Shown here: piece after piece, positions 1,438-56,672 of the stretch
How positions within the stretch are numbered: position 1 is the first letter of the stretch
How the letters are laid out: the number at the start of each line of letters is the position of its first letter
NCBI GenBank assembly: GCA_030041455.1
Contig: JASHNV010000058.1
Coordinates: forward strand, 1 to 64,000
Source: Spirochaetia bacterium
Lineage (GTDB): Bacteria; Spirochaetota; Spirochaetia; DAHUYW01
Direction of reading: 5' to 3'
DNA length: 64,000 nucleotides
Program-made: the position numbers and the translations under genes
The notes under the pieces: generated by a model
What the model was told of the DNA's origin: nothing
Database searches by the model: none
What the model saw: the letters and a program-made list of their open reading frames with translations, nothing else

Positions 1438-4400
1438 CTAGAAGGAGAGCTTGCCTTCGATCCCGAAGGTGAGGCCGAACAGGTAGCTCGTCTCGTCGAC
1501 CGCGATCTCGTTCGTCTGGATCCCGAATCCGAGCGTCGCGGCGATCTTCCCGTATTTCGTGAAGACGAGCGCGCTCTCGTGGGTCGCCGTGAGCTGAAAG
1601 GAGTTGACGATCACGTCCGGCTCGCTTGCGATCGTGAGCGACTCGGTGTGCTCGAGGTACATTCCCTTCTGAATCTGCGCCGGAAAGCCCGGAACGAGAA
1701 AGGTCGGGGAGACCGAGCTGTGCCAGACGAACGAGGAGACGAGGTTATCGGAGAAGCCCACGATGGTTCCCCAGGCGTAGGTGAGCCGGTTATCGAAGGA
1801 AAGCTGCGCCTTTTGGTCGCCGTAGAACGTGAGCGTGTTCTCGACGAAGGCGCTGCCCTGGTCGCCGATCTCCGAGCTCTGGATGCTGTCCTTGACGTCG
1901 ACGGTTTCCGAGAGCTCCTCGGTGTTGTAGAAGGGAAACAGGTGGTAGACGCCCTGCCGTCCGAACAGGTTGAGCGCGTCGGTGCGGACGTCCACCTCCC
2001 AGGACAGGGTGTCGTTCACGGTATCGGCCTGCCGCTCGAGCGCGCGCTCAAGCGACACCATGAGGTAGGAAGGCACGAAGAGGTCGCTGAGATGCGAGCC
2101 GGGCGTCCGGTTGGCCTGGAGCGAAAGCTCCGGCGTGTAGGAGGCGGCGAGAAGCCCGTTCGTCTCGTTCGTGAAATTCACGTTCGTCGCGTTGTCGAAG
2201 AGCTCGACGAGGGGAATGGCAGTCGCGGCGACCGGCATCGTGGCGAGCCCCGCGCCGTACGAGGACAGGTCGTCGGTGAGAGCGACGTCGTCCGGGGTGT
2301 AGAGCGTCGTTCCGACGGCGCGCGAGTAGACGGGAGCGAGCTGGAAGGCGAGCGGACCGCCGCTTCCGATCGTGATGGGAAGCGAGAGCGACGTCGTGCC
2401 CGTGTTCGCCTGATAGCGAGCGTCGGAGACGGAGCTGTCGTAGCTCGCCTGCTGCTTGATCTCGGCCCCGATGCCTTTGCCCTGCCAGAGAAGGTCGACG
2501 GTCGCGTTGCCGATCCTCTCCTCGAGAGGATCCGAGTAGAGCCCGAGCAGCTGGAAGCTGTCCGCCCAGTTCGCGAAGTAGTCGGCCGAGTAGGGGTTGA
2601 AGGTCGCGACGGTGTTCTGGAGCTCGGTCGTCACGTTGAGCGAGACGGGCGCGTGGAGCTGCGAGTTCAGCGTTCCGTTCCATACCTGGCTGAGGCCGCC
2701 CGCGAGCGTGGAGGAGGTGTCGGTAAAATTGATGCTCGCCACCGATGGGAGCACGAGCGCCGCCGTGGTCCCGTGGGCGAAGCTGATGCCCGAGGTCGGC
2801 AGAGCCACGGAGGCCGGGCTCGAAACGGGGGTCGTGGTCTCGGCGCCGCCCGCGACGCTCGCGAGAGCCCCCGCCTGCGGGGCGTTGCCCGCGCCGCTTT
2901 CCGCGACGCTCTGCGTATAGGTGTCGCCGAAGGTGACGAGCCCGAGGGGCACCCTCACCGAGTGTCCCCCGGAGATGGTGGTGTAGTCGGAGGTCCAGTC
3001 GTAGCCGAAAGAGCCCGAAAAGTTCACGAAGGCAAGGTCGGCGCCGACCTGGGTCGACGTCGAAGCGGTCGGCACGTCCTGAGAGCTCGTGAAGCCGCTC
3101 GCGAAGCCTGCGCCGCTCGCCGCCGCCTGCTCGTGAATCGTGAGGTTCGAGACGAGGGGGACGCCTCGCGCCGAGAAGAGCACGCCGGGTCGCGAGTAGT
3201 CGACCTTCAGATCAGCGCCGAAGGCCGCCTGGATGACGGAGTTCTCGAAGTGAACTTCGTCGATGTAGAACGTTCCCGCGCCCGCGCCCGAGACCGTCAT
3301 CGTCATCGTCGCGAGCTGGGAGGCGCCCGAGTCGACGGTGACGGTCGCTCCTCCGATCGCGGCGCCGTCCTCGAGCAGCTGATTTCCGAGGAGGTCGATG
3401 CTGTACTTGTGCCAGACTCCCGGCGAGCCGGGGGTGAACGTCAGGTGGATTCCGAGCTTCACGGAGTCGACGAGGTTGATGGCGAGCGCCTCGGAGACGC
3501 CCGCCGGCTGCAGGAGATAGAAACAGAGGTCTTTGTAGTTCCCAGGGGTCACCGGGGGGGGATACCCGGTGAGCGTGACGGCGTCCTGGCTGGTCGTATT
3601 GTTCCAGTTGACTTCCAGGACCTTGTTGATTTGGCCGTCCGGGTGAAAAATGGTGTTCACCTCGGGATAGCGGTCGGTGAGCTGGGCGCCGGGAGGCTGC
3701 GGGTCGCCGACCTCCTCGGCCGATCCGGTCGCCTCCGCGGTCGTCGCGACGTGGAAGGGCGAGCCCGCGAAGGTGATGTTCGTGATGAGGAGCTTTCCCG
3801 AGGCGCTTGAGCCCGCGGAGGCGACGATGATGATGCGAACGAAGCTTGCGGCGGTCAGGAGCGCGCGATCGGAGGCAGTCAGGGGTATGTCGACGGTCTG
3901 CCAGCCCGAGCCCGCGGCCGGGACGCTCAGGGGCTTCGTCACGACGAGGCTCGCGTTTTCCTGGTCGAGGATGCCGTTTCCGTTCATGTCCTCCGAATAG
4001 ACGCTCACCGGCGTGATGCCCGCCGCCGACGTCGGCGTGGTGGTGCTCGTGAAGTTCCCGGTGCCCCCCGACCCCGCGCCCACGCCCGTGAAGGTCGCGA
4101 TTCCGGTGGACGCGCTCGCGGTCGTTGTCGCGGGGGTGTCGAGCTGCCCCTGCCCTGCGCCGCCGCCGACGTAGAGAACCATGGTTCCCTGGTGAAAAGG
4201 GAACTCCATGCTGTTCGTCGACGAGCTCGACTCGAGGATGCCGCTTCCCTCGAGGTCTTCGCTGATCGCTCCGATCTGGATGTAGGCGGTCACCGTCCCG
4301 GAGGTCGCCATGCTGCTCAGCGAGAAGGTGAGGTCGGTCACGTCGGTGAGATCCTGCGGCGCGCTCGGAATCGGGATCTGAGCGCCTACCCAGTTCTGAG

Positions 4401-6510
4401 TCGACGTGAGCGCGTAGTCCATGACCATGACCATGCCGTAGTTCGAGTCCCACACCGGGTAGGGACCGATCCGGGAGCCGTTCGTATACGGGTAGATCTG
4501 GTTCGAGGGGATCGCCCAGTCGATCGATTCGAGCGCCGTGCTCGTGCTTCCGTAGGAGTTGTAGTCCTTGTAGAAGAGCTCGCCGCGCGTCGCTTGCGAG
4601 AAGCTTCCCACCGGATTCCCGAGGGCGGCGTCCTCGCTCAAGGGGGGCGCGCTTGAGGGCAGCTCGTTTTGGTCCGTGATGGACAGCGTCGACCCGCTAT
4701 CTTCCATCCCGAACAGGCGGAACTCGCCCGTCGTGTCGGGACTGGAGAGCGAGAATCCCGTTCGGATTTGCGCCTTGAGATTGGTCGTGGTGTAGTTCAG
4801 CCCCACGCCGATGATCGCCGACCCGGTGGCGGTTCCCTGCACGTCGGTGTAGGCCTGCGTGAAGGCCGCCCACTGAAGCCCCGCGCCGACGTCGAGCCCG
4901 ACGGTCGGCAGCAGGTCGAAGTTCGCGCCGAGCCCGAGCAGGAGATCTCCTCCCTGTCCCTGCGCATCCGTGGTGCGGTAGTTGATGACGATGAGATCGG
5001 TGGCGGCGATATCGACGGTGAACGTGAGGAGGCCGGAGGTATAGTCGACCGAGAACCGGTCCTCTTCCACGCCGTTTCGAAGGACGGAGACCGAGCCCGG
5101 GAGGACGTCGGTGTCGAGCTGGTAGCCGCTCACCGACGAAAGAACCTGAACCAGGATCTCCTGGTCGAGATCGGCGGGCTCGCGGCCCACCCCCGCGCTG
5201 TAGATATCGGGAAAGGTCGCCGCGAACGGGAACCTCGCCGCGATCGACCGGGGGTTCGGCGCCGCCGAGCCGGTGTCCCCCGGAGGCCCGAGGACGGTGA
5301 CCGTGCCGGCGCTCGGGTTCGCCTGCGCGGGGATCGCCACGCCGTTCTCGCTTCCCTTCGGGACGAGGAGCACGTAGATCCTCGGCGAGGTGCCGGAGTA
5401 GCCTTGCGGAAGCGAGTAGGTGTCGCAAGCCTCGAAGGGCGAGAAGACTCCGGGTTGGCTGATGAGGAGCCCCGGGAGCCCGCTCACCGTCACTTGCAGG
5501 CTCGACAGGGCGGTCGTCGTCGTCTGGCCGGGAACGCGGTAGGCGGTGTTCCAGTTGAAGTTCACCGGCGTCCCGTTGGGATCGATCGCGCCGGAGGCGT
5601 CGGTGGGGGGGAGGAACCCCGCGCCGAGGCCGGGCGACCCCACCGGCGAGCCGTTGACCGTGTAGTAGACCACCGCTCGGCCGGGCAGGGTCTTGGTGAA
5701 GAAGACGTACCCCTGCGACGAGGAGATGACCACGTCCGAGGTGGTCGCCGGCCGGTACCAATGGCCGTCGCTCCCCTTGATGGTGCCGGAGCCGTCTTCC
5801 ATGAACACCTGGACGCCGGTCACGTTGGCGTCCGGCAGATAGAAGAACCTCCCGTCGAGGTAGGCGCCGGGATTGGTCTGCTGCTCGGTGAGCTCGGAGT
5901 TCCCGATGAATGTCTTCGTCTGGAAGTTCTCCGGCTCGTAGCGGAGCATGGCCTCGTAGGTCGCCGTGTCGGTCCCGAACCGGGCCGAGATGCCGATCGA
6001 GTTTCGGGGCGCGTCCGGGAACTTCACGAAACCGTACTGTCCCATGTTGGTGTCGGTATTGCCCACGCGCACCGATTGAAGAAACTCTCCTGGCTTGCCG
6101 TTGTAGCCGAGCTCGAAGGTATTGAGGTCGAGGGGCAGGGTCGGGCCCGGGGTCTGGAGCGTCGAGTCGAGGAACGAGGCCTTCAGGAAGTAACGATCGA
6201 GCAGCTGGAGCGACACCGTGAGATCCGGCTGCTGCGTGAAGGCGAACCCCTGCGTCATCGTCGGAAAGGCCGCCGAGGAAAGGGGGCCGATCGGCTCGCC
6301 GGGAGTCGAGTCAAAAGTCCAGCCGAGCGACTCGGTCATTTGCGACTGCCAGGTTCCGGAGAGGAGGAGCTGGACGTCCGGGCTGCCGAGCTGGGTCGCG
6401 AAGACGCTCGGCAGGGCTTCGGTCCCCGGAAGCGGCAGCTCTTGCGCGAGGACGAGAAGGCAAGACGCATGGGCGAGCACCAGGGGAAGTGCGACTTTCC
6501 TCATCCTCAC
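1438..6510 (-). CDS. Giant outer-membrane beta-barrel protein, SprA-like
   Basis: The product is 1690 residues (1688 if ATG 6504 is used). It has an N-terminal signal peptide (MRKVALPLVLAHASCLLVLA, cleavage before QELPLPG) and ends in GIEGKLSF, the terminal-phenylalanine beta-signal of outer-membrane barrels. Near residue 478 VLRNGVEEDRFSVDYTSGLL matches the repeated jelly-roll-like motif of SprA proteins, and near residues 890-920 and 1085-1095 segments ending LLITNITFAG and TFYIDEVHFEN resemble SprA periplasmic strands. SprA is the 36-strand translocon of the type IX secretion system. No other T9SS component is in the window, so a general large porin or adhesin role is possible. The length is below a typical SprA of about 2300. 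Function is inferred. Confidence 0.55.
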   Translation of the reverse strand: MRMRKVALPLVLAHASCLLVLAQELPLPGTEALPSVFATQLGSPDVQLLLSGTWQSQMTESLGWTFDSTPGEPIGPLSSAAFPTMTQGFAFTQQPDLTVSLQLLDRYFLKASFLDSTLQTPGPTLPLDLNTFELGYNGKPGEFLQSVRVGNTDTNMGQYGFVKFPDAPRNSIGISARFGTDTATYEAMLRYEPENFQTKTFIGNSELTEQQTNPGAYLDGRFFYLPDANVTGVQVFMEDGSGTIKGSDGHWYRPATTSDVVISSSQGYVFFTKTLPGRAVVYYTVNGSPVGSPGLGAGFLPPTDASGAIDPNGTPVNFNWNTAYRVPGQTTTTALSSLQVTVSGLPGLLISQPGVFSPFEACDTYSLPQGYSGTSPRIYVLLVPKGSENGVAIPAQANPSAGTVTVLGPPGDTGSAAPNPRSIAARFPFAATFPDIYSAGVGREPADLDQEILVQVLSSVSGYQLDTDVLPGSVSVLRNGVEEDRFSVDYTSGLLTFTVDIAATDLIVINYRTTDAQGQGGDLLLGLGANFDLLPTVGLDVGAGLQWAAFTQAYTDVQGTATGSAIIGVGLNYTTTNLKAQIRTGFSLSSPDTTGEFRLFGMEDSGSTLSITDQNELPSSAPPLSEDAALGNPVGSFSQATRGELFYKDYNSYGSTSTALESIDWAIPSNQIYPYTNGSRIGPYPVWDSNYGMVMVMDYALTSTQNWVGAQIPIPSAPQDLTDVTDLTFSLSSMATSGTVTAYIQIGAISEDLEGSGILESSSSTNSMEFPFHQGTMVLYVGGGAGQGQLDTPATTTASASTGIATFTGVGAGSGGTGNFTSTTTPTSAAGITPVSVYSEDMNGNGILDQENASLVVTKPLSVPAAGSGWQTVDIPLTASDRALLTAASFVRIIIVASAGSSASGKLLITNITFAGSPFHVATTAEATGSAEEVGDPQPPGAQLTDRYPEVNTIFHPDGQINKVLEVNWNNTTSQDAVTLTGYPPPVTPGNYKDLCFYLLQPAGVSEALAINLVDSVKLGIHLTFTPGSPGVWHKYSIDLLGNQLLEDGAAIGGATVTVDSGASQLATMTMTVSGAGAGTFYIDEVHFENSVIQAAFGADLKVDYSRPGVLFSARGVPLVSNLTIHEQAAASGAGFASGFTSSQDVPTASTSTQVGADLAFVNFSGSFGYDWTSDYTTISGGHSVRVPLGLVTFGDTYTQSVAESGAGNAPQAGALASVAGGAETTTPVSSPASVALPTSGISFAHGTTAALVLPSVASINFTDTSSTLAGGLSQVWNGTLNSQLHAPVSLNVTTELQNTVATFNPYSADYFANWADSFQLLGLYSDPLEERIGNATVDLLWQGKGIGAEIKQQASYDSSVSDARYQANTGTTSLSLPITIGSGGPLAFQLAPVYSRAVGTTLYTPDDVALTDDLSSYGAGLATMPVAATAIPLVELFDNATNVNFTNETNGLLAASYTPELSLQANRTPGSHLSDLFVPSYLMVSLERALERQADTVNDTLSWEVDVRTDALNLFGRQGVYHLFPFYNTEELSETVDVKDSIQSSEIGDQGSAFVENTLTFYGDQKAQLSFDNRLTYAWGTIVGFSDNLVSSFVWHSSVSPTFLVPGFPAQIQKGMYLEHTESLTIASEPDVIVNSFQLTATHESALVFTKYGKIAATLGFGIQTNEIAVDETSYLFGLTFGIEGKLSF

Positions 6511-6903: not shown

Positions 6904-7629
6904 CTATCCGGTGAGCTCCTCCGACGAGCCGCGGGGGAAGAGCACGAGATTGTCGGTCTTGAAGGCGCGGTGATAGTGGAGCGAGCCCGAGTAGGTCCGC
7001 TCGGAGGTGAGCTCGATCTTGAAGAAGTGGTGGAGCGTCTCGTACTCCTGGGTCGCGATCGAGAGCTCGAAGTCGAAGGTCATCGTTTCTTCAGGCCTCG
7101 TCGCCTGCGCGGGGGAAGGCCAGAAGTAGAAGCTTCCCGCCGTGTGGTCGGAGACCGGGTACGGGTTTTGCCAGTTCCGGTCGATCATCGGCGCGAGTTT
7201 CCCCTCGCGAAGCAGCGCCACCGAGACCCCGCTCACCGGCTCGAAGGTCGCGCCGTTCAGCACTCTTCCCTCGATCACGGGAAAGCTCCAGAGAGGCCCG
7301 TCAGGGAGCGCCGCTTCCGACGCCGCGATCTGTCCGTCGTGCGCGAACTGCGGGCGCATGGTCGCGGAGACCGTCTGGATGCCCCGGTTCACGAGCGCCA
7401 CGAGGTCGGCTGTCGTCTGAAGCTGGTCGCGGTAGTCGGCGAGAAGGTGAGCGAGCCCCCGACCCGAAACGGTGTACTGCGGCGTGAGCCGATTCAGGAC
7501 GTAGCACATGACGTCGAGGCGGCACTGGTGGCACGTGCAGAAGCCCTGCCGTCCGTTCAGCTCCTCCTCGTCGAAGAGATCGTCGACGGTCTTCAAGACG
7601 AGATCCTCGAGAAGGTTATGCACCTTCAC
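6904..7629 (-). CDS. ComFB-family protein with C-terminal beta domain
   Basis: Residues 1-95 match the late-competence ComFB family: MKVHNLLEDLVLKTVDDLF and the cysteine cluster Cys31, Cys33, Cys36 and Cys42, likely a zinc site, followed by LNRLTPQYTVSGRG. Despite the name, the biochemical role of ComFB in DNA uptake is unproven, and in other bacteria ComFB-domain proteins bind cyclic nucleotides. The remaining 140 residues (from about 110) form an uncharacterised beta-rich part beginning VIEGRVLNGATFEPVSGVSV, which resembles a carboxypeptidase regulatory-like fold. The gene lies 16 bases downstream of the YbjN-like gene and is probably cotranscribed with it. Confidence 0.7.
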   Translation of the reverse strand: MKVHNLLEDLVLKTVDDLFDEEELNGRQGFCTCHQCRLDVMCYVLNRLTPQYTVSGRGLAHLLADYRDQLQTTADLVALVNRGIQTVSATMRPQFAHDGQIAASEAALPDGPLWSFPVIEGRVLNGATFEPVSGVSVALLREGKLAPMIDRNWQNPYPVSDHTAGSFYFWPSPAQATRPEETMTFDFELSIATQEYETLHHFFKIELTSERTYSGSLHYHRAFKTDNLVLFPRGSSEELTG

Positions 7630-7645
7630 GCGCGTCCGTCCTCGC

Positions 7646-8077
7646 TCATTCTTTCTCGATCTCGATGAGCTCTTTGAGAGCTTCGATGGACTCCTGGAAG
7701 TCCTTCAGCGTCTCGCGAAGGCTGTAATAGTTCAACCCCGCGAAATAGACCTTCGAGAATATCGAGAAGCTGATGTCGCCGTTCTCCTCTTTCTGGATAT
7801 TGAGGTAGCATCCGTACTCGTAGCAGACCTTCAGCATTTCCTCGAGCTTCTGCTGGACGATCGCGGCGAGCTTGGGAGAGAAGGTGAAGGTGTAGGCGAT
7901 TTCCAGGAACTTATTGTCGCTGTCGATGTAGAATCCGCCCTGGAAGGAATCGCCTTGCTCGAAGCTCGCGGTGTACGTTTCCTCCTGTCGCTCTCCTTCG
8001 AATAGGTCGTAGCCTAACTCCTTGAAAAGAACCCGAACACGGCGTATTCGCTCTTTCATGAGCTTAGAGTACTTCAT
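7646..8077 (-). CDS. YbjN-like small cytoplasmic protein
   Basis: The 143-residue product starts MKYSKLMKERIRRVRVLFKE; ATG 8077 is preferred because GGGGAGAGGGA directly precedes it, whereas the longer frame lacks a site. The alternating pattern, with a strand GGFYIDSDNKFLEIAYTFTF, helix AAIVQQKLEEMLKVCYEYG and a final helix LKDFQESIEALKELIE, resembles the YbjN/type III chaperone-like fold. No catalytic motif is visible and no function can be given. It heads a two-gene unit with the ComFB gene. Confidence 0.55.
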   Translation of the reverse strand: MKYSKLMKERIRRVRVLFKELGYDLFEGERQEETYTASFEQGDSFQGGFYIDSDNKFLEIAYTFTFSPKLAAIVQQKLEEMLKVCYEYGCYLNIQKEENGDISFSIFSKVYFAGLNYYSLRETLKDFQESIEALKELIEIEKE

Positions 8078-8099
8078 TCCCTCTCCCCATCCTCCAGGT

Positions 8100-8128
8100 A
8101 ATGTAGTGCAGAATGCCGATTGATTCAA
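8100..8128 (-). promoter_or_regulatory. Sigma-70 promoter for the YbjN-like/ComFB unit
   Basis: Minus strand: TTGAAT (8128-8123), 17-base spacer, TACATT (8105-8100). The predicted start is near 8093, giving a leader of about 16 bases that contains the purine-rich ribosome site. Confidence 0.55.
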
Positions 8129-8152
8129 GCAAGGTCGATCCGCGCGGCGCTT

Positions 8153-9424
8153 TCAGCGCGTACGGATGAGCTCGTCGGGGTTGCGAACTCTCGGGGCGAC
8201 GTCGGCCGGAAGCATGAGCCGGACCTTTCGGAGGGTCCGGCCGAAGCCCTCGACGACCGGATCGCGGAATACCGAGTCGCTGTCGGAGAAGCGCTCCTCG
8301 CCCGCCGAGGCGACGATCGGCACGAGGACCTCGAAGGAGATCGGCTCGGGAATGTCGATGATGACGCTTTCCGGCGGGACTCGGACGCCGAGCTCCCGCG
8401 AGAGCCTGAGAGCGATGAGGCGCTCCCGCTCGGCTCGCGTGTCGAGATCGAGGAGGCCGCCGTGGACCCCGTCCCCGGGAGCGAATGTTTCCTCCGAGGC
8501 GGTCTTGAGCAGATTCCGCTCGCTCACCCTTCGGATCAGCTCTCCCCCCGGTCCCTTGAGCGCGGAGAATCGGGCGAAGAACTCCACGTCGTCGAGGCCG
8601 TAGAGGGACTCGGGCTTCACGAGGCCCTCGCGAAGATCGAGGTAGACCGCCTTCTTGATCATCGCGGTGGCGACGCGGACGGTCTTGTGCCAATAGACCG
8701 TGCGGTACATGAGGTACTTGGAGAAGAGCACGTTTTCCACTGCCGTGGCGCCCTGGGCGTCCACGGCGATGCCCCAGGTCCGGTGAGGGCGCATGCGGCT
8801 GATGACGAAGTCGGTGTCCTGGACTCCGTAGGGGACGCCACAGAAATAGGCGTCGCGGTTGAGATAGTCGAGCTTGTCGGGATCGAGCACGCCGGAGAGG
8901 ATCCCGCGGAAAAAGGAGACCTCCGCGCCGGCGAGCGGAAGCTGCGTATCGACGATCCCCGCGACGAGCCCGGGATCGACGCCGAGCGCGCTTCGAATGG
9001 TCTCCGAGAGGGGGGAGTCCACGATCTGCTCGGCCGCGAGCCGCTCGTGCTCCTTCAGCGGAAGCTCCTTCAGCGAGTGGGCGAAGGGAAAGTGGCCGAG
9101 ATCGTGCAGCAGCGCCGCGCAAAGAAAGGCCTTCACGCCCTCCACGGACAGATCGACGGAGGGATCGGACCGCAGGAGCGCGATCATGACCCTCCGCGCG
9201 AGGTGGAAGACCCCGAGGCTGTGGCTGAGCCGGGTGTGCGTCGCCCCCGGGTAGACCTGATAGGCCGGACCGAGCTGCTTGATGCCGCCGAGCTTCTGGA
9301 AGGCGCGCTCCCGCACGATTCGCATGAGCTCGGGGGAAAGGTCGATGTTGTGCCACAGCGGATCCCGAATGGGCTCGGTGTAGGCGTTGTGGAGATGATC
9401 GAGGGCCTCCGCGATCGCGCTCAT
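8153..9424 (-). CDS. HD-domain phosphohydrolase (SAMHD1/dGTPase-like)
   Basis: The 423-residue protein has the full metal-binding HD signature: His68 in HTRLSHSLG, His107-Asp108 in LLHDLGHFPFAH, and DPDKLDYLNRDAYFCGVPYG at 181-200, which supplies the last Asp. This arrangement defines the SAMHD1-like HD proteins that hydrolyse deoxynucleoside triphosphates or other phosphoesters. The C-terminal 200 residues include VIIDIPEPISFEVLVPIVAS and are typical of this subfamily. It probably acts in the cytoplasm on nucleotides; the substrate cannot be read from the sequence. The upstream region holds a well-spaced promoter; no strong ribosome site precedes ATG 9424. Confidence 0.85.
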   Translation of the reverse strand: MSAIAEALDHLHNAYTEPIRDPLWHNIDLSPELMRIVRERAFQKLGGIKQLGPAYQVYPGATHTRLSHSLGVFHLARRVMIALLRSDPSVDLSVEGVKAFLCAALLHDLGHFPFAHSLKELPLKEHERLAAEQIVDSPLSETIRSALGVDPGLVAGIVDTQLPLAGAEVSFFRGILSGVLDPDKLDYLNRDAYFCGVPYGVQDTDFVISRMRPHRTWGIAVDAQGATAVENVLFSKYLMYRTVYWHKTVRVATAMIKKAVYLDLREGLVKPESLYGLDDVEFFARFSALKGPGGELIRRVSERNLLKTASEETFAPGDGVHGGLLDLDTRAERERLIALRLSRELGVRVPPESVIIDIPEPISFEVLVPIVASAGEERFSDSDSVFRDPVVEGFGRTLRKVRLMLPADVAPRVRNPDELIRTR

Positions 9425-9494: not shown

Positions 9495-9541
9495 TATCCT
9501 TCCTGCCGAGCGAGCCGCTTCTTTACAGGCAAGGGGTTCAT

Positions 9542-10258
9542 TTGGTAAAACTGTCCATAGTGCGGAGTCATGTGCGTTCGCGGCTTGCCTTCATCATCCT
9601 CCTCGTCGCGGCGGCAGCCGGAGGGTGCTCGCGGCACCCGGCGCCGTCCGGCCAGGCCGGGGCTCCGACGGCCGGTCCGCGGCCGACGCCGCAGACGTTA
9701 GGCGCGCTCCGCCCCTTGACGCTCGGGCCCGTGGCGCGTCAGGGGGGAGCGCTCCCTCAGGCGAGCCTCTTCGTTGCGGCCGCGTCCCTCGCCGGAGACG
9801 CCGCCCTGCTCGCGCTGAGCGCGCCGGCGCCGGTCCTCCCCACCGATTTCGTCATCGGGCCGCTCGAGCCGGAAGGCCGGCCCCAGGCGGAGTCGAGCAG
9901 GGTGGCTGCGGTCATTTCCGCGTTTTTTGCCGCTCTCGCGAAGGGCAAGGTGGAGGTGGGCGTGATAAGCCAGGACCAGCGCGAAATTCTCCTCCACGTG
10001 CTCGACGGTCCGATCGCCGACAAGGACATTCCGCGCAGCGTGCGAATCGGCGCCATTACGATCGACGGCGGCGAGGCGCACGCGAGGATCCGCATGATGT
10101 CCGGCGTCGGAAGGACCGACGGCGCGGTCTATCTCGATCTGGTCAAAAAGAGCTGGCAGATCTCCGATATCCAGGCCGACTTCGGCGCGCTTTCGCGCGA
10201 GTACAAACGGACGTCTCTCTACGAGCCGTCGACCTGGCAATGGATGCTGAACGACTAA
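9542..10258 (+). CDS. Putative lipoprotein with NTF2-like C-terminal domain
   Basis: The start is taken as TTG 9542, six bases after AAGGGG (9531-9536); a GTG at 9560 is possible. The N-terminus is basic and hydrophobic (RLAFIILLVAAAAGGC) with Cys29 as the likely lipidation site, a relaxed spirochaete-type lipobox. A proline-rich linker of about 90 residues follows. The last 115 residues (VAAVISAFFAALAKGKVEVG to WQWMLND) have the helix-then-curved-sheet pattern of NTF2-like proteins, including a strand VYLDLVKKSWQISDIQADFG. No enzyme motif is evident. It is the first gene of a tight operon with the PilZ gene 12 bases downstream. Confidence 0.6.
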   Translation: MVKLSIVRSHVRSRLAFIILLVAAAAGGCSRHPAPSGQAGAPTAGPRPTPQTLGALRPLTLGPVARQGGALPQASLFVAAASLAGDAALLALSAPAPVLPTDFVIGPLEPEGRPQAESSRVAAVISAFFAALAKGKVEVGVISQDQREILLHVLDGPIADKDIPRSVRIGAITIDGGEAHARIRMMSGVGRTDGAVYLDLVKKSWQISDIQADFGALSREYKRTSLYEPSTWQWMLND

Positions 10259-10270
10259 GGAGCGCCGAGC

Positions 10271-11509
10271 ATGGGGACGGGTGTAAGCAGGATTGAGCAG
10301 GAGTTCGTTCTGTCGACTGTCCACGACAAGACGATGCCGGTCAAGGTCCACGCCAATCGCCAGGAGTCCGAGGGCCGAATCGTCTCGCTCAGCGACTCCG
10401 AGATGGTCATCGAGCTCGCCGCGCCGCTCAAGCTGCTCCATGACGAGCGGCTGCGGGTGTTCTTCTCCTATTTTGGCCACGTCATGACGTTCACCACGCG
10501 CGCGCGAAACGTCGAGGACCGCCAGGTCACGGTCGCCTATCCGAAAGGCCTGTACAAGAACCTGCAGCGCAAGTACGAGCGGGTGCTCCCGCCGGTCGGG
10601 ACGAAGGCCTACTTCACGCTGTCGAGCACGAAAGTCGAGCTCAACTTTCCGAAGTCCGAGGAGTACGATCCCGTCGACAAGCCGCAGTTCTCCGACAAGT
10701 TTCGGCCCGAAAGCATCGCGGAGCTTGTCAGGTCCTTCCGCGAGTCGGTCTCGGCGCGCTGCACCGAGAACAGCGTCATGATGTTCCGCGACCGCCAGCC
10801 CTCAGGCTATGAGGAGGAGATCATCGCGAAGACGGCCAAGATGCTGCTCATCACGGGCGCCGAGGGCGGGCTGCCTCTTGGGGACAGCGAGCGCGGCGAG
10901 CGATTCATCACCCGGGAGATGATTGCGAAGGCCGGAAGCGAGATCGGCGCGCCGCAAATCTTTCGCGAGAACTTTGCTGCGCTTCTTCAGCGGAAGCGGA
11001 AGCAGGGCGTCGTCTCCGAGCTCTATTGCCCGATACTCTTTCACGAGTACGTCATCGGCTACGTGTATCTCCTCAGCAAGACCAAGGACTTCGATCAAGA
11101 TCTCGTCGACCACGTACTGCAGTTCTCCCAGGTCCTCGCCTACTCGCTGAAGATCAACAATTATTTCAAGGGGGCCGATGTCGACTCCGAGCGCTATGAG
11201 ACGCAGATCCTCAACCTGAGCGCTTCCGGCATGCTTTTCGCCCACAACTCGGCGAAGCTGAAGGACGGCTTGATGATCTACACGGACGTTCCGGTGGTCC
11301 TCGTCGTGAAGGAAAGGAAAATGGTCATCGGCTCGAGAATCATGAGAAAGTACGAGGACGCGCTCACCTGTTATTTCGGCGTGCAGTTTCTCGAGATTCA
11401 GCCCGAGGACTTTCGCTATCTTTTCGAGCTCGTGTACGGGCGTCCCTTCACGAAGGAGGACGGCGAGCTTTGGGAAGGCGGGACGGCGCCCCCGCCGCTT
11501 GAGCTCTAG
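10271..11509 (+). CDS. PilZ/DUF1577-type protein with central GAF-like region
   Basis: This 412-residue protein has an N-terminal YcgR-like beta domain (VHANRQESEGRIVSLSDSEM), a middle helical-sheet segment about residues 140-300 that resembles a GAF sensor (YCPILFHEYVIGYVYLLSKT), and a C-terminal PilZ domain from about 305 with NLSASGM at 314-320 and CYFGVQFLEI near 375. Canonical PilZ binding of c-di-GMP needs an RxxxR motif before the D/NxSxxG motif; only ERYET precedes it, so binding is uncertain. Related DUF1577/PilZ proteins are common in spirochaetes. The start ATG 10271 follows AAGGAG (10257-10262). The stop is two bases before the next ATG, so translation is coupled. Confidence 0.75.
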   Translation: MGTGVSRIEQEFVLSTVHDKTMPVKVHANRQESEGRIVSLSDSEMVIELAAPLKLLHDERLRVFFSYFGHVMTFTTRARNVEDRQVTVAYPKGLYKNLQRKYERVLPPVGTKAYFTLSSTKVELNFPKSEEYDPVDKPQFSDKFRPESIAELVRSFRESVSARCTENSVMMFRDRQPSGYEEEIIAKTAKMLLITGAEGGLPLGDSERGERFITREMIAKAGSEIGAPQIFRENFAALLQRKRKQGVVSELYCPILFHEYVIGYVYLLSKTKDFDQDLVDHVLQFSQVLAYSLKINNYFKGADVDSERYETQILNLSASGMLFAHNSAKLKDGLMIYTDVPVVLVVKERKMVIGSRIMRKYEDALTCYFGVQFLEIQPEDFRYLFELVYGRPFTKEDGELWEGGTAPPPLEL

Positions 11510-11511
11510 GT

Positions 11512-14430
11512 ATGGTGTACCTGCTTGTCGAGATAAGCGGTCACCGGCAGCTCGCGAAGCTTCGAGGCGGCGTGGTCGCAGGCCTCGTCGAGAGCATTAC
11601 GGGTCTCGTTCGGTACAGCGGCGGGAACGCCGTGGTGGCGGACAAGGGGATGCTGCTGCTCTCCGTCGATCCGGAGGGGAAGACCGCCGAGGCGCAGGCC
11701 GAGCTCGTGTATCGGGTCTACGAGATCCTCCTGCAGCGACGGCGCGAGCTTCAGGGCTTCACCGTGTACGCCGAGGAGTTCGACGACCTCAATCCGGGAC
11801 TGGCGCTCGCGCGCTTGGCGCAGAGCTCGCTCGTCTCCGATCGGACCGATATCCTGCGGATCGGCGACCGCCTCAGATCTCGCTTGGAAGGGCTGCTGAT
11901 CGTGCGGCCGGCCGGAGAGTTCGCCGACGTCCTCGGCCGATCCGAGCGGATGGGGCACTCCTACCGGCTCGTGCACGACTTCCTCGTGCGCGAGCCGGTG
12001 GTCGAGCTTCTGCTTTCCATCCTCACGCCCCTCGTCAACCGCGAGCGGCCTCCCGGGTGGGTTCACGTCTACGGCCTCCCGCTCTGCGGCAAGAGCCAGA
12101 ACGTGAGCGCGGCGCTTCGCAGGCTCGCGGCGGCGGAGGGCAATCCGCCCTGGCTCACGCTCTTCTCCGCCTCCGACGGGCTTCCCTCCGCGGCGCCGTT
12201 TATCGAGAGTCTCCGCCCCGATTTCATGGACCGAGTGCCCGAGTACCTGAAGCCGGCCGAACGGGCGGCCTGGGAGCAGCGAAAGAGCGTCCTCGAGCTC
12301 GAGACGTGCGCGGACCACTTCGAGGAGGACTTCTTCGCCGCCTATTGCCACTACCTGCTCGCCTACATCCGATTCATGGACCGCAAAGGCCTTCCGCCCA
12401 TCGTCGTGTGCGAGCAGTTTCACGCCTTCGGCAGGGGCTCTCACGAGCTCCTCGCGCGCGTAATCGAGAAGTTCCGCGACTTCTCTCCGATCATTCCGAT
12501 CTGCGTCTCCGACTCCCCCGTCGTGCCCGAAGCGCTCGCGGCCGTCCCGCGAAGCGCCGTCGAGATCGCGCCCCTCGGTCTGGAGGAGCTTCGCGAAGCG
12601 CTCGGCGCGCTGCCCGAAGGCGCGGAGGTCGACGCCGAGGACCTGCTTCTCCGTACCGAAGGCAGGCCCCTGTACGCGAGCCACTACGTCTCGTTGTCCG
12701 TCAAAGCGGATCAGAGGGGGGAGCGCATATCGCTCGATCTGCTCCGGCAGATCGAGGAGACCTGCCGCAAGTCGCTCTACGTGCTCTATCTCACCGAGGG
12801 GATTCTCGGCATCGAGGAGGCCCGGCGATTTCTCGGGCGCGAGGGGCTCGTGCCGGAGGTGGTCGAGAGCGCGCTTGGCCGGCTCGTGTCCCTCGGCTTC
12901 GTACGGAAGAGCACCGGTCAGGTCGTCCTTCCGAGCGTCGCCGCGCTCCTTGAGGGAGAGTTCCGTCCCGACGGGCTGCAGGCGAAAGCGGCCGAGTACT
13001 TTTACGGCCAGTGGAAGCAGGGCGCGCTTCGCGGGAGCGAGCGGCTCGTGAGGTTCGTGGCGCTGTGGGGCCGATTCGAGCAGGCGGCCGACCTCTTCTT
13101 CCAGTACGCCACCGAGCTCCTCGATCGGAGCGAGGTCGACCAGGTGCTCGATTACCTGCAGCGCGAGGACGTCTTTCCCACGATGCTCGATCCGGCGCAG
13201 GCGCGAAAGCGCGACTTCTTTCTCGACATCTTGGCGCTTCGCGCCTCCGTTCTCCTCAAGGAGAAGGATCAATCGGAGCTTCGCGTCACGAAGGCGAAAG
13301 AGGAACGCCCGGAGGGCGATTGGGAGCTGAGCCTCTACGAGCTTTCCTGCGCTCAGCACCTGTACGCCGCGCGCGAGATTCGCGCGGCGCTCGACTCGGC
13401 GAAGCGGGCCCTGATCGCCTCCCAGCGGGTCGAGGCACCTCGTCTGGAGTATCGCGCGAACATCGAGATCGGCCTCGCCATGCTCGCGAACACGCGCCTG
13501 GAGGAGGCCGAGGACTACTTTACGATCGCGCGGGAGTCATCGGGGGGAGAGGAGCGCTCCTACGATTCGCTGCGGAGTCTCGGCTTCGAGGCCGTGACCC
13601 ATTTCGACTTCGGCAACTACTCCAAAGCGATTCGAACCGCCGACGCGGCGAGCGAGGTCGCCGTCGCGATCTGCCGGCGGGAGTGGCAGCGCTTTCTGAT
13701 TTTCCTGCGCGGCAGGTGCCACTTCGCCCTGGGGCTGTACGACGAGGCAGCCGGCGCCTTTCAAACGGGCACCTCGCTCTGCCGGGTCTATCCGCACGCC
13801 GCGGCGAGCAGGGTTTTCGAAGCGTGGACCGCGCGAGCGGCCTACTATGCCGGCACACGCCAGGCGTTGAAGACGCTCGAGGAGATGGATCCCAGCGGGG
13901 AAGTGCTCTTCTTCACCGGCGAGATCCGGGCGGGCAACGGAGAGTGGGCGGAGGCGGCGGCTCTTTTCGACCGTGCTCTTCGCGCTCTCGACGACGAGCG
14001 AGAGGCGTACCTGCCGAGCGAGATCGTTTCGTGGCGAAGCGGTTTTGCGGGAATCGAGGACCGCGCCTTTCGAGGCGCCGACGGACACGGGGTTCTCCAT
14101 CACATGGCGCGCGCGATGAAAGCCTACGTCGTTGCGCACCTCGAGGACTCCTCGGAGGGCGTCGCCGAGCTCACGCGGATCACGCGCGAGGACAAGCTCT
14201 CCGACCAAGACCCGAACGAGTCCTTCTACTATTTCCTCCACAGTCAGATACTGCCGGAGGGACAGGGCGACCTGCTCGTGGACCGCCTGACCGTGCTCAA
14301 CAAGGCGCTCAAGCACGCCCAGGAGCGGGCGACGCGGATCGACGAGGTCAAGATGCGCCGCGCCTTTCTTCAATCCAACCGGTGGAACGTCCGGCTTTTC
14401 GCCGACGCGAGAAAGCACAAGCTCGTCTAG
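11512..14430 (+). CDS. Large STAND-like P-loop ATPase with C-terminal TPR array
   Basis: The 972-residue protein starts with a small alpha/beta domain (residues 1-120) containing LVRYSGGNAVVADKGMLLLS, reminiscent of a class III cyclase-like or GTPase fold. A P-loop GLPLCGKSQ follows near residue 188, then Walker-B-like LPPIVVCEQFHAF near 300. This is the layout of signal-transduction STAND ATPases. Residues 480-970 are helical pairs with TPR character, for example LEYRANIEIGLAMLANTRLE and GRCHFALGLYDEAAGAFQTG. The Walker A is atypical and nucleotide use is not assured. Such proteins act as scaffolding switches. Co-transcription with the PilZ gene suggests a shared signalling or surface-related job; the input is unknown. 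Confidence 0.65.
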   Translation: MVYLLVEISGHRQLAKLRGGVVAGLVESITGLVRYSGGNAVVADKGMLLLSVDPEGKTAEAQAELVYRVYEILLQRRRELQGFTVYAEEFDDLNPGLALARLAQSSLVSDRTDILRIGDRLRSRLEGLLIVRPAGEFADVLGRSERMGHSYRLVHDFLVREPVVELLLSILTPLVNRERPPGWVHVYGLPLCGKSQNVSAALRRLAAAEGNPPWLTLFSASDGLPSAAPFIESLRPDFMDRVPEYLKPAERAAWEQRKSVLELETCADHFEEDFFAAYCHYLLAYIRFMDRKGLPPIVVCEQFHAFGRGSHELLARVIEKFRDFSPIIPICVSDSPVVPEALAAVPRSAVEIAPLGLEELREALGALPEGAEVDAEDLLLRTEGRPLYASHYVSLSVKADQRGERISLDLLRQIEETCRKSLYVLYLTEGILGIEEARRFLGREGLVPEVVESALGRLVSLGFVRKSTGQVVLPSVAALLEGEFRPDGLQAKAAEYFYGQWKQGALRGSERLVRFVALWGRFEQAADLFFQYATELLDRSEVDQVLDYLQREDVFPTMLDPAQARKRDFFLDILALRASVLLKEKDQSELRVTKAKEERPEGDWELSLYELSCAQHLYAAREIRAALDSAKRALIASQRVEAPRLEYRANIEIGLAMLANTRLEEAEDYFTIARESSGGEERSYDSLRSLGFEAVTHFDFGNYSKAIRTADAASEVAVAICRREWQRFLIFLRGRCHFALGLYDEAAGAFQTGTSLCRVYPHAAASRVFEAWTARAAYYAGTRQALKTLEEMDPSGEVLFFTGEIRAGNGEWAEAAALFDRALRALDDEREAYLPSEIVSWRSGFAGIEDRAFRGADGHGVLHHMARAMKAYVVAHLEDSSEGVAELTRITREDKLSDQDPNESFYYFLHSQILPEGQGDLLVDRLTVLNKALKHAQERATRIDEVKMRRAFLQSNRWNVRLFADARKHKLV

Positions 14431-14434
14431 GCCA

Positions 14435-14850
14435 CTAGCGCGCTCCGGACGGATCGTAGTCGGGGCGAGCTCGGGAAAGTTCAGCTCGGGGGGCAGGCGG
14501 GCAGGGCGGCCGGAGGAGTTGACCGTCACCCAGGTGACCTCGGCCTCGCAGACAAGCTCTCCGGCTCGGAGCACCCTCTGGCGAAAGACCCCGCCGGTCA
14601 CCCGCCGCTGCGTCGGCGTCGTCTCGATGAGCAGCTCGTCGTCGAGGCTCGACGGAAGTCTGTAGTCGATCGCGATCCGGGAGATGACGACGCCGTAGCC
14701 CTTCTCGCGCATGCCTCGGTAATCGAACCCGATGCCCTTGAGAAACTCCATCCGTGCGTATTCGAGGTAATTGAGGTAGACGGCGTTGTTCACGTGGTTG
14801 TAGCCGTCGCATTCGTAGCCGCGTACGACGTGAGTGCAGGTGAGTGTCAC
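14435..14850 (-). CDS. Acyl-CoA thioesterase (4HBT hotdog fold), no proper stop codon
   Basis: GTG 14850 is chosen because GGAGG sits five bases before it. The protein opens TLTCTHVVRGYECDGYNHVN and carries the 4HBT signature ECDGYNHVNNAVYLNYLEYA (Asp near residue 14), then VVISRIAIDYRLPSSLDDEL and VTGGVFRQRVLR, so it is a YbgC/FadM-type thioesterase hydrolysing acyl-CoA. The domain ends near base 14440 (about 137 residues), normal for the family. The frame does not stop there but runs antisense through the neighbouring ATPase gene to 13537, adding 300 residues of nonsense; a stop in another frame lies at 14435-14437, so a one-base indel near the end is likely. Confidence 0.65.
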
Positions 14851-14961
14851 GCTCGCCTCCGGTCCGGCAGTGTAGCTCGCCCAAGGATGGTTCGGCAAGG
14901 AGACTCGAGCGCCTCCGAGGGGCAGGCTCCCTCGAGGGCCGTCGCGACGGGCTCAAGCGTG

Positions 14962-16003: not shown

Positions 16004-16573
16004 GTGGCAGGATCATGTGTCGTGCTTACCGGGGCATCGGGCGGAGGAAAGACCACCATCGCTCTCGCCGTCAAGACAATGCGTCCTGACTTCACGGTCT
16101 TGCACTTTGACGCCATTGGGGTTCCGTCAGCGGAAGTCATGGCGACCTTCGGAACAGGTCGCCAGCCAGGCGGGGAGTGGCAACGCGCGATGACCCTGCA
16201 ATGGCTCGAGCGGATTACGCGCTATCTCAAAGCCGGAGACAATGTGCTGTTCGAGGGGCAAATGCGAATTGCATTCATTCTCGAGGGGCTCGCACGCTAC
16301 GAGGTTTCGAACGCACGGATGATCGTCGTGGACTGCGACGATCAAACCCGCACTCGCCGCCTCACGAAAGATCGTCGACAGCCGGAGTTGGCGAACGACG
16401 GCATGATGGGATGGAGCAAGTATCTGCGCCAAGAGGCAATCGAGGCCGGGTGCGATATTCTTGATACCGGCGCTCTTCCATTGGCGGAGAGCGTTCGGCG
16501 AATCGTCGGCTACCTCGGCGGAACAGACCGTGAGCCGACGTTCGGAAGCAATTCCAGAAAAATAGCTGATTGA
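16004..16573 (+). CDS. P-loop nucleotide kinase-like protein
   Basis: The 189-residue product opens with a Walker A motif, VVLTGASGGGKTTIALAVKT, followed by a short phosphate-acceptor-like segment and FEGQMRIAFILEGL near residue 85, then MIVVDCDDQTRTRRLTKDRR, a LID-like arginine-rich segment typical of small kinases. It resembles ATP-binding kinases of the AAA_33/shikimate kinase type; the substrate is unknown. The start is GTG 16004 with GAGGAG at 15989-15994. Amino-acid usage and lower GC than its neighbours hint at recent acquisition. Its 3' end touches a transposase remnant on the other strand. Confidence 0.65.
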   Translation: MAGSCVVLTGASGGGKTTIALAVKTMRPDFTVLHFDAIGVPSAEVMATFGTGRQPGGEWQRAMTLQWLERITRYLKAGDNVLFEGQMRIAFILEGLARYEVSNARMIVVDCDDQTRTRRLTKDRRQPELANDGMMGWSKYLRQEAIEAGCDILDTGALPLAESVRRIVGYLGGTDREPTFGSNSRKIAD

Positions 16574-55649: not shown

Positions 55650-56672
55650 ATGGAGAGCGTACGGATCCTGGCGGTCGCCCGGAGCCTATCCCGCCTGAAG
55701 CGACTTCGCTCGAGCGCGGCCGAGGAGGGCTTCGAGCTCCTCACGGCGCGCTCGGGGAGCGAAGCGCTCGCCATCGTGGAGACCGGGCAGATCGACCTGC
55801 TCCTCCTTGAGGACGCGCTTCCCGGCGCCCTCACGGTCGTCGCCGCGCATCGCGCGAAGCGCGGGAGCGAGCCGCATCAGATCGTCGCGCTCACGCCGGG
55901 GCTCGCCCGAGGCGGCTTTCGCGGGAACATCCCGTACGACGACTTCTTCGCCGCGTTCGCCTCGACGGGGGAGCGAAAGGCGAGGATCCGATCGGCGGTC
56001 GATCGCCTGCGCCGCCAGCGCGAGCTCGCGCGCGAGCGGGACCATTTTCGCGCCGCGATCCACGACGAGCGCGAGCAGTCCGCTCGACTCCTCGACCGGC
56101 ACCTGCATCTCGTGAAGGCCTTCCGCGCCATGGAGGGCATCAACGAGGAGCTTGAGCGGAGCAACAAGCGCCTTGAGAAGATCGCCCGCTACGACATGCT
56201 CTCGGGACTGCTGAACCGGTCGAGCCTCTTCGCCGCGATGGACATCGAGATCGAGCGCGCGGTGAGAAACGGCGCCCCGCTCGGCGGATTCATGACCGAT
56301 ATCGACCATTTCAAGAGCATCAACGACAACTTCGGCCATCCGTACGGCGACGAGGTCATCCGCCAGATCGGCAATCGGTTGAAGCTCGCGATGAGGACCT
56401 ACGACTCCGCCGGCAGGTACGGAGGCGAGGAGTTCTTCATCATTCTGCCGAACACCACGATCGACCAGGCGCGCATGATCGCCGAGCGCTTTCGCGAGAG
56501 TCTCGACCGCGCTCCGGTGGTCCTCGGCGACGACACGGTGAAGGTGACCGCGTCGCTCGGCGTCGCCGAATACCGGGTAGGGGCGAATCGGGAGGAGTGG
56601 GTACGCTCCGCCGACCGCGCGATGTACAGCGCGAAGCAGGAGGGACGGAACCGGACCGTCGTCGAGGCCTAG
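55650..56672 (+). CDS. Diguanylate cyclase with degenerate receiver-like domain
   Basis: The 340-residue protein starts with a response-regulator-like fold (residues 1-115: VRILAVARSLSRLKRL, TGQIDLLLLEDALPG) that lacks the acidic pocket, then a coiled coil (about 125-190) and a GGDEF domain with RYGGEEFFIILPNT near residue 257. The active-site GGEEF and the RxxD inhibitory site five residues upstream (RTYDSAGRYGG) are both intact, so it should make c-di-GMP and be product-inhibited. GGAGG lies before ATG 55650. It converges on phoR with a four-base CTAG overlap of stops. Confidence 0.92.
   Translation: MESVRILAVARSLSRLKRLRSSAAEEGFELLTARSGSEALAIVETGQIDLLLLEDALPGALTVVAAHRAKRGSEPHQIVALTPGLARGGFRGNIPYDDFFAAFASTGERKARIRSAVDRLRRQRELARERDHFRAAIHDEREQSARLLDRHLHLVKAFRAMEGINEELERSNKRLEKIARYDMLSGLLNRSSLFAAMDIEIERAVRNGAPLGGFMTDIDHFKSINDNFGHPYGDEVIRQIGNRLKLAMRTYDSAGRYGGEEFFIILPNTTIDQARMIAERFRESLDRAPVVLGDDTVKVTASLGVAEYRVGANREEWVRSADRAMYSAKQEGRNRTVVEA

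What the first reader, a model, noticed from the sequence alone, without database searches (positions are those of the whole stretch)
9542..14430. Lipoprotein - PilZ/GAF - STAND/TPR ATPase operon
Three genes with 12- and 2-base spacing link an envelope lipoprotein, a protein with a PilZ domain and atypical c-di-GMP motif, and a 972-residue ATPase with a TPR scaffold. The combination looks like a signalling relay from a second messenger to a large multiprotein switch, and I cannot match it to a described system. A diguanylate cyclase exists elsewhere in the window (55650-56672).
Basis: inference. Interest (0 to 1): 0.5.

Follow-up and report, generated by a model that had tools for sequence, protein, structure and literature searches.

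The report
Spirochaete c-di-GMP receptor gene trio
Three tightly packed genes, found in the same order across many spirochaete bacteria, link an exported protein, a sensor for the bacterial signal molecule c-di-GMP and a large scaffold protein whose energy-using site has decayed in most relatives; the last two were found only in species that have flagella, so the set may help control swimming.

Summary
The trio is real and at the stated coordinates (12- and 2-base gaps). It belongs to a conserved locus of class Spirochaetia. The middle gene is a YcgR^GAZ (DUF1577) c-di-GMP receptor. Its motif is canonical (RKYER and NLSASG), split by a GAF-like insert, not atypical. Both motifs are kept in 74 of 77 relatives, and one Leptospira homologue binds c-di-GMP in vitro (PMC11800159). 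The first gene encodes an exported NTF2-fold protein, a lipoprotein here. The third has a STAND-TPR fold, but its P-loop is intact only in the window protein (0 of 34 relatives), so "ATPase" does not describe the family. In other lineages an Rsb-type partner switch (SpoIIE, STAS, HATPase) lies between genes 2 and 3; this genome carries such an operon elsewhere. The exported gene precedes the receptor in 71 of 76 loci, and the TPR gene follows it in 41 of 61. The TPR gene occurs in 37 of 49 FliG-positive genomes and 0 of 11 FliG-negative ones; the receptor in 25 of 49 and 0 of 11. I favour a c-di-GMP-responsive motility module. The linkage to motility and all protein contacts are inferred. No searched paper describes the locus.

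The parts
9531..9536 (+). AAGGGG, likely ribosome-binding site for the TTG start at 9542
   Evidence: sequence read directly
9542..10258 (+). exported NTF2-like lipoprotein, 238 aa; signal and lipobox AAGGC (Cys 29); ordered domain about residues 100-220
   Evidence: AF2 core pLDDT 97-98; Foldseek top hits mostly NTF2-like folds; family kept upstream of the receptor in 71 of 76 loci
10271..11509 (+). YcgR^GAZ (DUF1577) c-di-GMP receptor, 412 aa
   Evidence: PF07238 E 1.9e-10, PF07614 25.8 bits vs cut-off 25; PilZ in 22 of 22 and DUF1577 in 13 of 22 family members
10568..10582 (+). RxxxR motif (RKYER, residues 100-104)
   Evidence: R100 and R104 invariant in 22 sequences; 74 of 77 relatives
10583..11212 (+). 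region between the two c-di-GMP motifs, holding the GAF-like (GAZ) insertion
   Evidence: DUF1577 match 81-280 and weak GAF match 233-291; architecture described in PMC11800159
11213..11230 (+). [D/N]xSxxG motif (NLSASG, residues 315-320)
   Evidence: 76 of 77 relatives
11512..14430 (+). STAND-like P-loop / TPR protein, 972 aa, no signal sequence
   Evidence: AF2 pLDDT 88.6, pTM 0.79; best PDB match STAND sensor PH0952 (6mfv), E 8e-13; AAA_16 and TPR
12073..12096 (+). Walker A GLPLCGKS (residues 188-195), intact here, degenerate in relatives
   Evidence: 0 of 34 relatives have GxxxxGK[ST]
13258..14427 (+). TPR superhelix, the conserved core of the family (about residues 583-972)
   Evidence: Pfam TPR matches; invariant columns all C-terminal; helices in AF2 model
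8153..9424 (-). HD + HD_assoc_2 protein, divergently transcribed conserved neighbour (not HD-GYP by Pfam)
   Evidence: kept upstream in 64 of 72 loci
6904..7629 (-). ComFB-domain protein, conserved neighbour
   Evidence: kept in 53 of 61 loci

Best explanation
The locus is a conserved c-di-GMP-responsive regulatory module of Spirochaetia, most likely acting on motility. Step 1 (well supported by homology): the YcgR^GAZ protein binds c-di-GMP through RxxxR and NxSxxG and changes its PilZN/PilZ arrangement. Step 2 (inferred): the bound form docks on the co-encoded STAND-derived TPR protein, which works mainly as a scaffold or adaptor; nucleotide switching is possible in this organism but lost in most relatives. 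Step 3 (inferred): this changes access of the receptor to the flagellar motor, or feeds the Rsb-type partner switch encoded between the two genes in many relatives and on contig C53 here. Step 4 (inferred): the exported NTF2-fold protein is an envelope-side sensor or anchor for the same pathway, on the side of the membrane where spirochaete flagella lie.
For: Order and strand kept: exported protein upstream of the receptor in 71 of 76 loci, median gap 10 bases; TPR protein downstream in 41 of 61, median gap 27 bases where directly adjacent. c-di-GMP motifs intact in 74 of 77, and homologue LIC_11920 binds c-di-GMP at 60-300 nM (PMC11800159). TPR family in 37 of 49 FliG-positive and 0 of 11 FliG-negative genomes (P 4e-6; by family 23 of 29 vs 0 of 4, P 0.005); receptor 25 of 49 vs 0 of 11, P 0.0016. 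All 17 class genomes with a strong receptor hit in the phylum sample also have a strong TPR hit, including several where the two genes are far apart or on different contigs. Partner-switch genes sit between receptor and TPR genes in several families.
Against: No flagellar gene was identified at the locus, and the published survey finds flagellar genes rare near YcgR^GAZ (PMC11800159). By single-protein search the TPR protein persists without the receptor in 13 of 60 relatives, and it does so in a 1.14-Mb genome that looks like Treponema pallidum. Termite-gut Treponema keep the receptor pair without a TPR gene next to it, and three of the 60 relatives have the receptor without a detected TPR gene. 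The FliG association rests on four FliG-negative families and could reflect genome reduction. Divergent homologues of the exported protein were detected in three FliG-negative genomes. No contact was tested.
Confidence: 0.45

Rival explanations
1. Conserved neighbourhood, not one pathway: the genes stay together because this chromosome segment is rarely rearranged; the receptor works alone as a YcgR-type motor brake and its neighbours do other jobs.
For: Neighbours with no obvious signalling role are also retained: HD protein 64 of 72, ComFB 53 of 61, plus DUF503, TtcA, ion channel, thioesterase and aconitase genes. Receptor and TPR genes occur apart in several lineages.
Against: The three are on one strand, usually with gaps of 1-99 bases where adjacent (exported gene to receptor median 10), while several neighbours vary (TtcA 18 of 53, cl5 34 of 58). 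Exported-protein and TPR genes stay adjacent where the receptor is missing (L106, L224). All 17 receptor-bearing class genomes in the phylum sample have the TPR gene even when unlinked.
Confidence: 0.25
2. Signalling to transcription or adhesion instead of the motor: the receptor and TPR protein feed the Rsb-type partner switch (SpoIIE phosphatase, STAS antagonist, HATPase kinase), which releases a sigma factor or another target; the link to flagella is indirect.
For: SpoIIE-STAS-HATPase, or a HATPase plus single-domain PilZ pair, is inserted between the two genes in many relatives. The window genome carries a SpoIIE-STAS-HATPase operon with a strong match to the same HATPase family (283 bits) on another contig.
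Against: In this genome the module is not at the locus, and no sigma factor was identified among the conserved neighbours. Insertion in convergent orientation could be incidental.
Confidence: 0.2
3. The third gene is a STAND immune or stress sensor, unrelated to c-di-GMP, in which the P-loop and TPR detect a ligand or phage protein.
For: Closest solved folds are STAND proteins: PH0952 first, the phage sensor Avs3 second. Walker A is intact in the window protein.
Against: No PADLOC match. Conserved position across the class instead of a patchy defence-island distribution. P-loop degenerate in all 34 relatives examined. Absent from FliG-negative genomes.
Confidence: 0.05

Closest known systems
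YcgR^GAZ family (DUF1577), e.g. Leptospira interrogans LIC_11920 (PMC11800159)
   Same: PilZ domain with a GAF-like insert between RxxxR and [D/N]xSxxG; confined to spirochaetes; c-di-GMP binding shown for the homologue
   Different: The cited papers name no conserved partner gene (PMC12943098: genomic context uninformative; PMC11800159: flagellar genes rare nearby). Here the gene sits in a conserved operon-like set with an exported NTF2-like protein and a STAND-TPR protein
YcgR / MotI / FlgZ flagellar brakes
   Same: PilZN-PilZ c-di-GMP receptor class; motif set; receptor found only in FliG-positive genomes in the sample
   Different: GAZ insertion; co-encoded scaffold and exported protein; contact with FliG or MotA not shown
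STAND NTPases with TPR sensors (PH0952, MalT, AfsR)
   Same: P-loop domain followed by a TPR superhelix; Foldseek and profile matches to PH0952, profile match to AfsR, MalT-type TPR match in 6 of 26
   Different: Extra N-terminal alpha/beta domain; Walker A lost in most members; no DNA-binding output domain recognised; linked to a PilZ receptor
RsbU-RsbV-RsbW partner switches
   Same: SpoIIE phosphatase, STAS and HATPase genes interleaved with the locus in relatives
   Different: Encoded elsewhere in this genome; target unknown; a HATPase-PilZ pair is an additional variant
Treponema denticola TDE0214 and Borrelia PlzA
   Same: Spirochaete PilZ c-di-GMP receptors whose loss alters motility (PMC10519070, PMC11800159)
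   Different: Not tested here for homology beyond the PilZ domain; no linked NTF2-like or STAND-TPR gene known to me

Membership tests
YcgR^GAZ (DUF1577) | C-terminal PilZ domain | tested here: met
   PF07238 E 1.9e-10
[quoted passage not shown]
   residues 100-104 and 315-320; key residues invariant in A2
YcgR^GAZ (DUF1577) | DUF1577 match over the PilZN plus GAF-like region | tested here: met
   25.8 bits vs cut-off 25, residues 81-280; 13 of 22 family members. Narrow margin
YcgR^GAZ (DUF1577) | c-di-GMP binding | not testable with these tools
   shown for LIC_11920 only (PMC11800159)
STAND NTPase | STAND fold: P-loop domain followed by a helical repeat superstructure | tested here: met
   AF2 model pLDDT 88.6, Foldseek PH0952 E 8e-13, TMt 0.65
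STAND NTPase | functional Walker A / nucleotide switch | tested here: inconclusive
   GLPLCGKS intact in the window protein but absent in 34 of 34 relatives; activity not testable
NTF2-like fold proteins | alpha-helices packed on a curved beta sheet | tested here: met
   AF2 core pLDDT 97-98; most top Foldseek hits are NTF2-like, though only two have E below 1e-3
Bacterial lipoproteins | signal sequence with lipobox Cys | tested here: met
   LVAAAAGGC in the window; some termite-gut Treponema homologues have a Sec-type signal without lipobox
Rsb-type partner switch | SpoIIE, STAS and HATPase genes at the locus | tested here: not met
   absent at this locus; present between receptor and TPR genes in relatives and on contig C53 of this genome
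Anti-phage defence systems | match to a PADLOC model | tested here: not met
   no hit for the three proteins

The most novel reading that the evidence does not exclude
A previously undescribed spirochaete signalling complex in which c-di-GMP bound to YcgR^GAZ controls periplasmic flagella through a STAND-derived pseudo-ATPase TPR scaffold, with an exported NTF2-fold protein reporting from the envelope and an Rsb-type partner switch as a second input or output.
Probability: 0.25. Interest if true: 0.75.

Novelty: new variant of a known kind. Interest (0 to 1): 0.5.

Why it matters
YcgR^GAZ proteins are an expanded c-di-GMP receptor family of spirochaetes whose partners are unknown, and published analyses found genomic context uninformative in Leptospira. 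This locus names specific candidate partners that are conserved across a class of bacteria, and connects c-di-GMP sensing with partner switching. If the flagellar link holds, it would help explain how bacteria with internal flagella tune swimming. It also shows a STAND protein family in which the nucleotide switch has mostly been lost while the scaffold is kept.

Tried and rejected
N-terminal domain of the TPR protein as a class III cyclase or GGDEF remnant: the predicted topology fits that superfamily, but hhalign gave only E about 0.02-0.03 to each (single comparison, probability about 1%), and the four cyclase proteins examined (three from this genome, one from its same-genus relative) have other architectures; left undecided. 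A genome-contig scan with the TPR alignment failed for lack of conserved stretches, so the receptor alignment was used. Promoter scan found no sigma-70-like site and terminator hits at chance level. A defence role was checked with PADLOC and dropped. The window's diguanylate cyclase was dropped as evidence because the genome has 16 GGDEF matches. NCBIfam gave no match for the three proteins. The PDB sequence search with the lipoprotein profile gave only weak hits, over the signal and linker region.

Full report
Observation. The three ORFs are real: 9542-10258, 10271-11509 and 11512-14430, all on the + strand, with 12 and 2 bases between them. The first starts with TTG five bases after AAGGGG and encodes a signal sequence ending in a lipobox (LVAAAAGGC). 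The second has a PilZ domain (Pfam E 1.9e-10), a DUF1577 match just above its cut-off, and a weak GAF match; the third has AAA_16 and TPR matches.

Middle gene. [quoted passage not shown]). The window protein fits: RKYER at 100-104 and NLSASG at 315-320 lie on either side of the insert. Both motifs are found in 74 of 77 full-length relatives. The homologue LIC_11920 binds c-di-GMP at 60-300 nM, and mutation of the two arginines abolishes binding (PMC11800159). That paper found flagellar genes rare near this subfamily, and a second paper found genomic context uninformative in Leptospira (PMC12943098).

First gene. A 41-sequence alignment gave an AlphaFold2 model with a core of pLDDT 97-98. Foldseek's top hits are mostly NTF2-like folds, including the RsgI9 NTF2 domain and the YbjP lipoprotein, but only two reach E below 1e-3. 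In some termite-gut Treponema the homologue appears to lack the lipobox but keeps a Sec-type signal (read by pattern and by eye), so export is conserved more widely than lipidation.

Third gene. The AlphaFold2 model (pLDDT 88.6, pTM 0.79) matches the STAND protein PH0952 best (E 8e-13, TMt 0.65). Conservation is concentrated in the C-terminal TPR part. The window protein has Walker A GLPLCGKS, but none of 34 relatives has GxxxxGK[ST] in the N-terminal region, only 6 of 34 aligned sequences (window included) keep even a G..G[KR] pattern, and AAA_16 is detected in 4 of 26. The family is better called a STAND-derived TPR protein than an ATPase. The N-terminal 145 residues form an alpha/beta domain whose strand order resembles nucleotidyl cyclases or GGDEF; profile comparison could not decide.

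Conservation. Single-protein searches of 60 relatives found the TPR, receptor and exported proteins in 35, 25 and 25 genomes. In 80 named loci the exported gene is upstream of the receptor in 71 of 76 with enough contig, the TPR gene is downstream on the same strand in 41 of 61, and the HD gene is upstream in 64 of 72. Median gaps are 10 and 27 bases. The order is HD (divergent), exported protein, receptor, TPR. Because HD and ComFB genes are retained almost as well, synteny alone does not prove one pathway. Two further points do argue for association: in the phylum sample all 17 class genomes with a strong receptor hit also have a strong TPR hit, even where the genes are unlinked, and exported-protein and TPR genes are adjacent where the receptor is missing (L106, L224). 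In the separate sample of 60 relatives the rule is looser: 22 of 25 receptor-bearing genomes have the TPR gene.

Partner switch. In several families a convergent block lies between receptor and TPR genes: HATPase plus single-domain PilZ, or SpoIIE-GAF phosphatase, STAS and HATPase, or both. In the window genome that block is absent from the locus, but a SpoIIE-STAS-HATPase operon with a strong match to the same HATPase family (283 bits) lies on contig C53.

Flagella. FliG is absent from 11 of 60 relatives. The TPR family (profile search, counting only matches with E below 1e-28; presence lists were compiled by hand from the printed tables) is in 37 of 49 FliG-positive and 0 of 11 FliG-negative genomes (Fisher P 4e-6; 23 of 29 vs 0 of 4 by family, P 0.005). 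The receptor, by single-sequence search, is in 25 of 49 vs 0 of 11 (P 0.0016). Weak hits to the exported protein exist in three FliG-negative genomes. Genomes within a family are not independent, and assembly gaps affect some absences. The association suggests a motility role but does not prove it.

What is shown and what is inferred. Shown by tools: gene structure, family membership of the receptor, folds of the other two at model level, conserved order, P-loop decay, co-distribution with FliG. Taken from a paper: c-di-GMP binding by a homologue. Inferred: binding by this protein, any contact among the products, a motility output, and the role of the exported protein.

Counting notes. Loci were scored from six-frame open reading frames with HMMs built from the first 41 loci, so divergent exported proteins may be missed; two of the five loci scored as lacking it (L193, L197) show an upstream ORF that looks exported. 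The 80-locus set was capped and was found with receptor patterns, so it cannot say how often the TPR gene occurs without the receptor; the genome searches address that.

Noticed in passing
window 13537-14898 (-): The thioesterase-like ORF downstream (its relatives are about 135 aa) stays open for about 890 bases antisense into the TPR gene, so its normal stop seems to be missing or its frame shifted.
   Followed up: no
window 6904-9424 (-): Divergent block HD/HD_assoc_2, a 160-aa protein without a convincing family, and ComFB is conserved almost as well as the trio; its function and link to the trio are unknown.
   Followed up: partly
L085, L089, L101, L119 (between receptor and TPR genes): A HATPase next to a single-domain PilZ protein forms a recurring pair, possibly a c-di-GMP-controlled anti-sigma-type kinase.
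   Followed up: partly
L229:677-3266 (-), contig C53 of the window genome: A complete SpoIIE-STAS-HATPase operon with a strong match to the HATPase family of the block inserted at the locus in relatives.
   Followed up: partly
L214 (G111, contig of 1,139,633 bases): A genome whose size suggests Treponema pallidum encodes the TPR protein (864-aa open frame) but no detected YcgR^GAZ gene.
   Followed up: partly
window 1438-6510 (-): A 1690-aa protein with a likely signal sequence, with homologues beside the locus in 9 of 41 loci compared; not identified.
   Followed up: no
window 16004-16573 (+): A 189-aa P-loop kinase-like protein with a sub-threshold zeta-toxin match.
   Followed up: no
L131, L133, L134 and others: An aconitase gene is repeatedly inserted between the HD gene and the exported-protein gene.
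   Followed up: no
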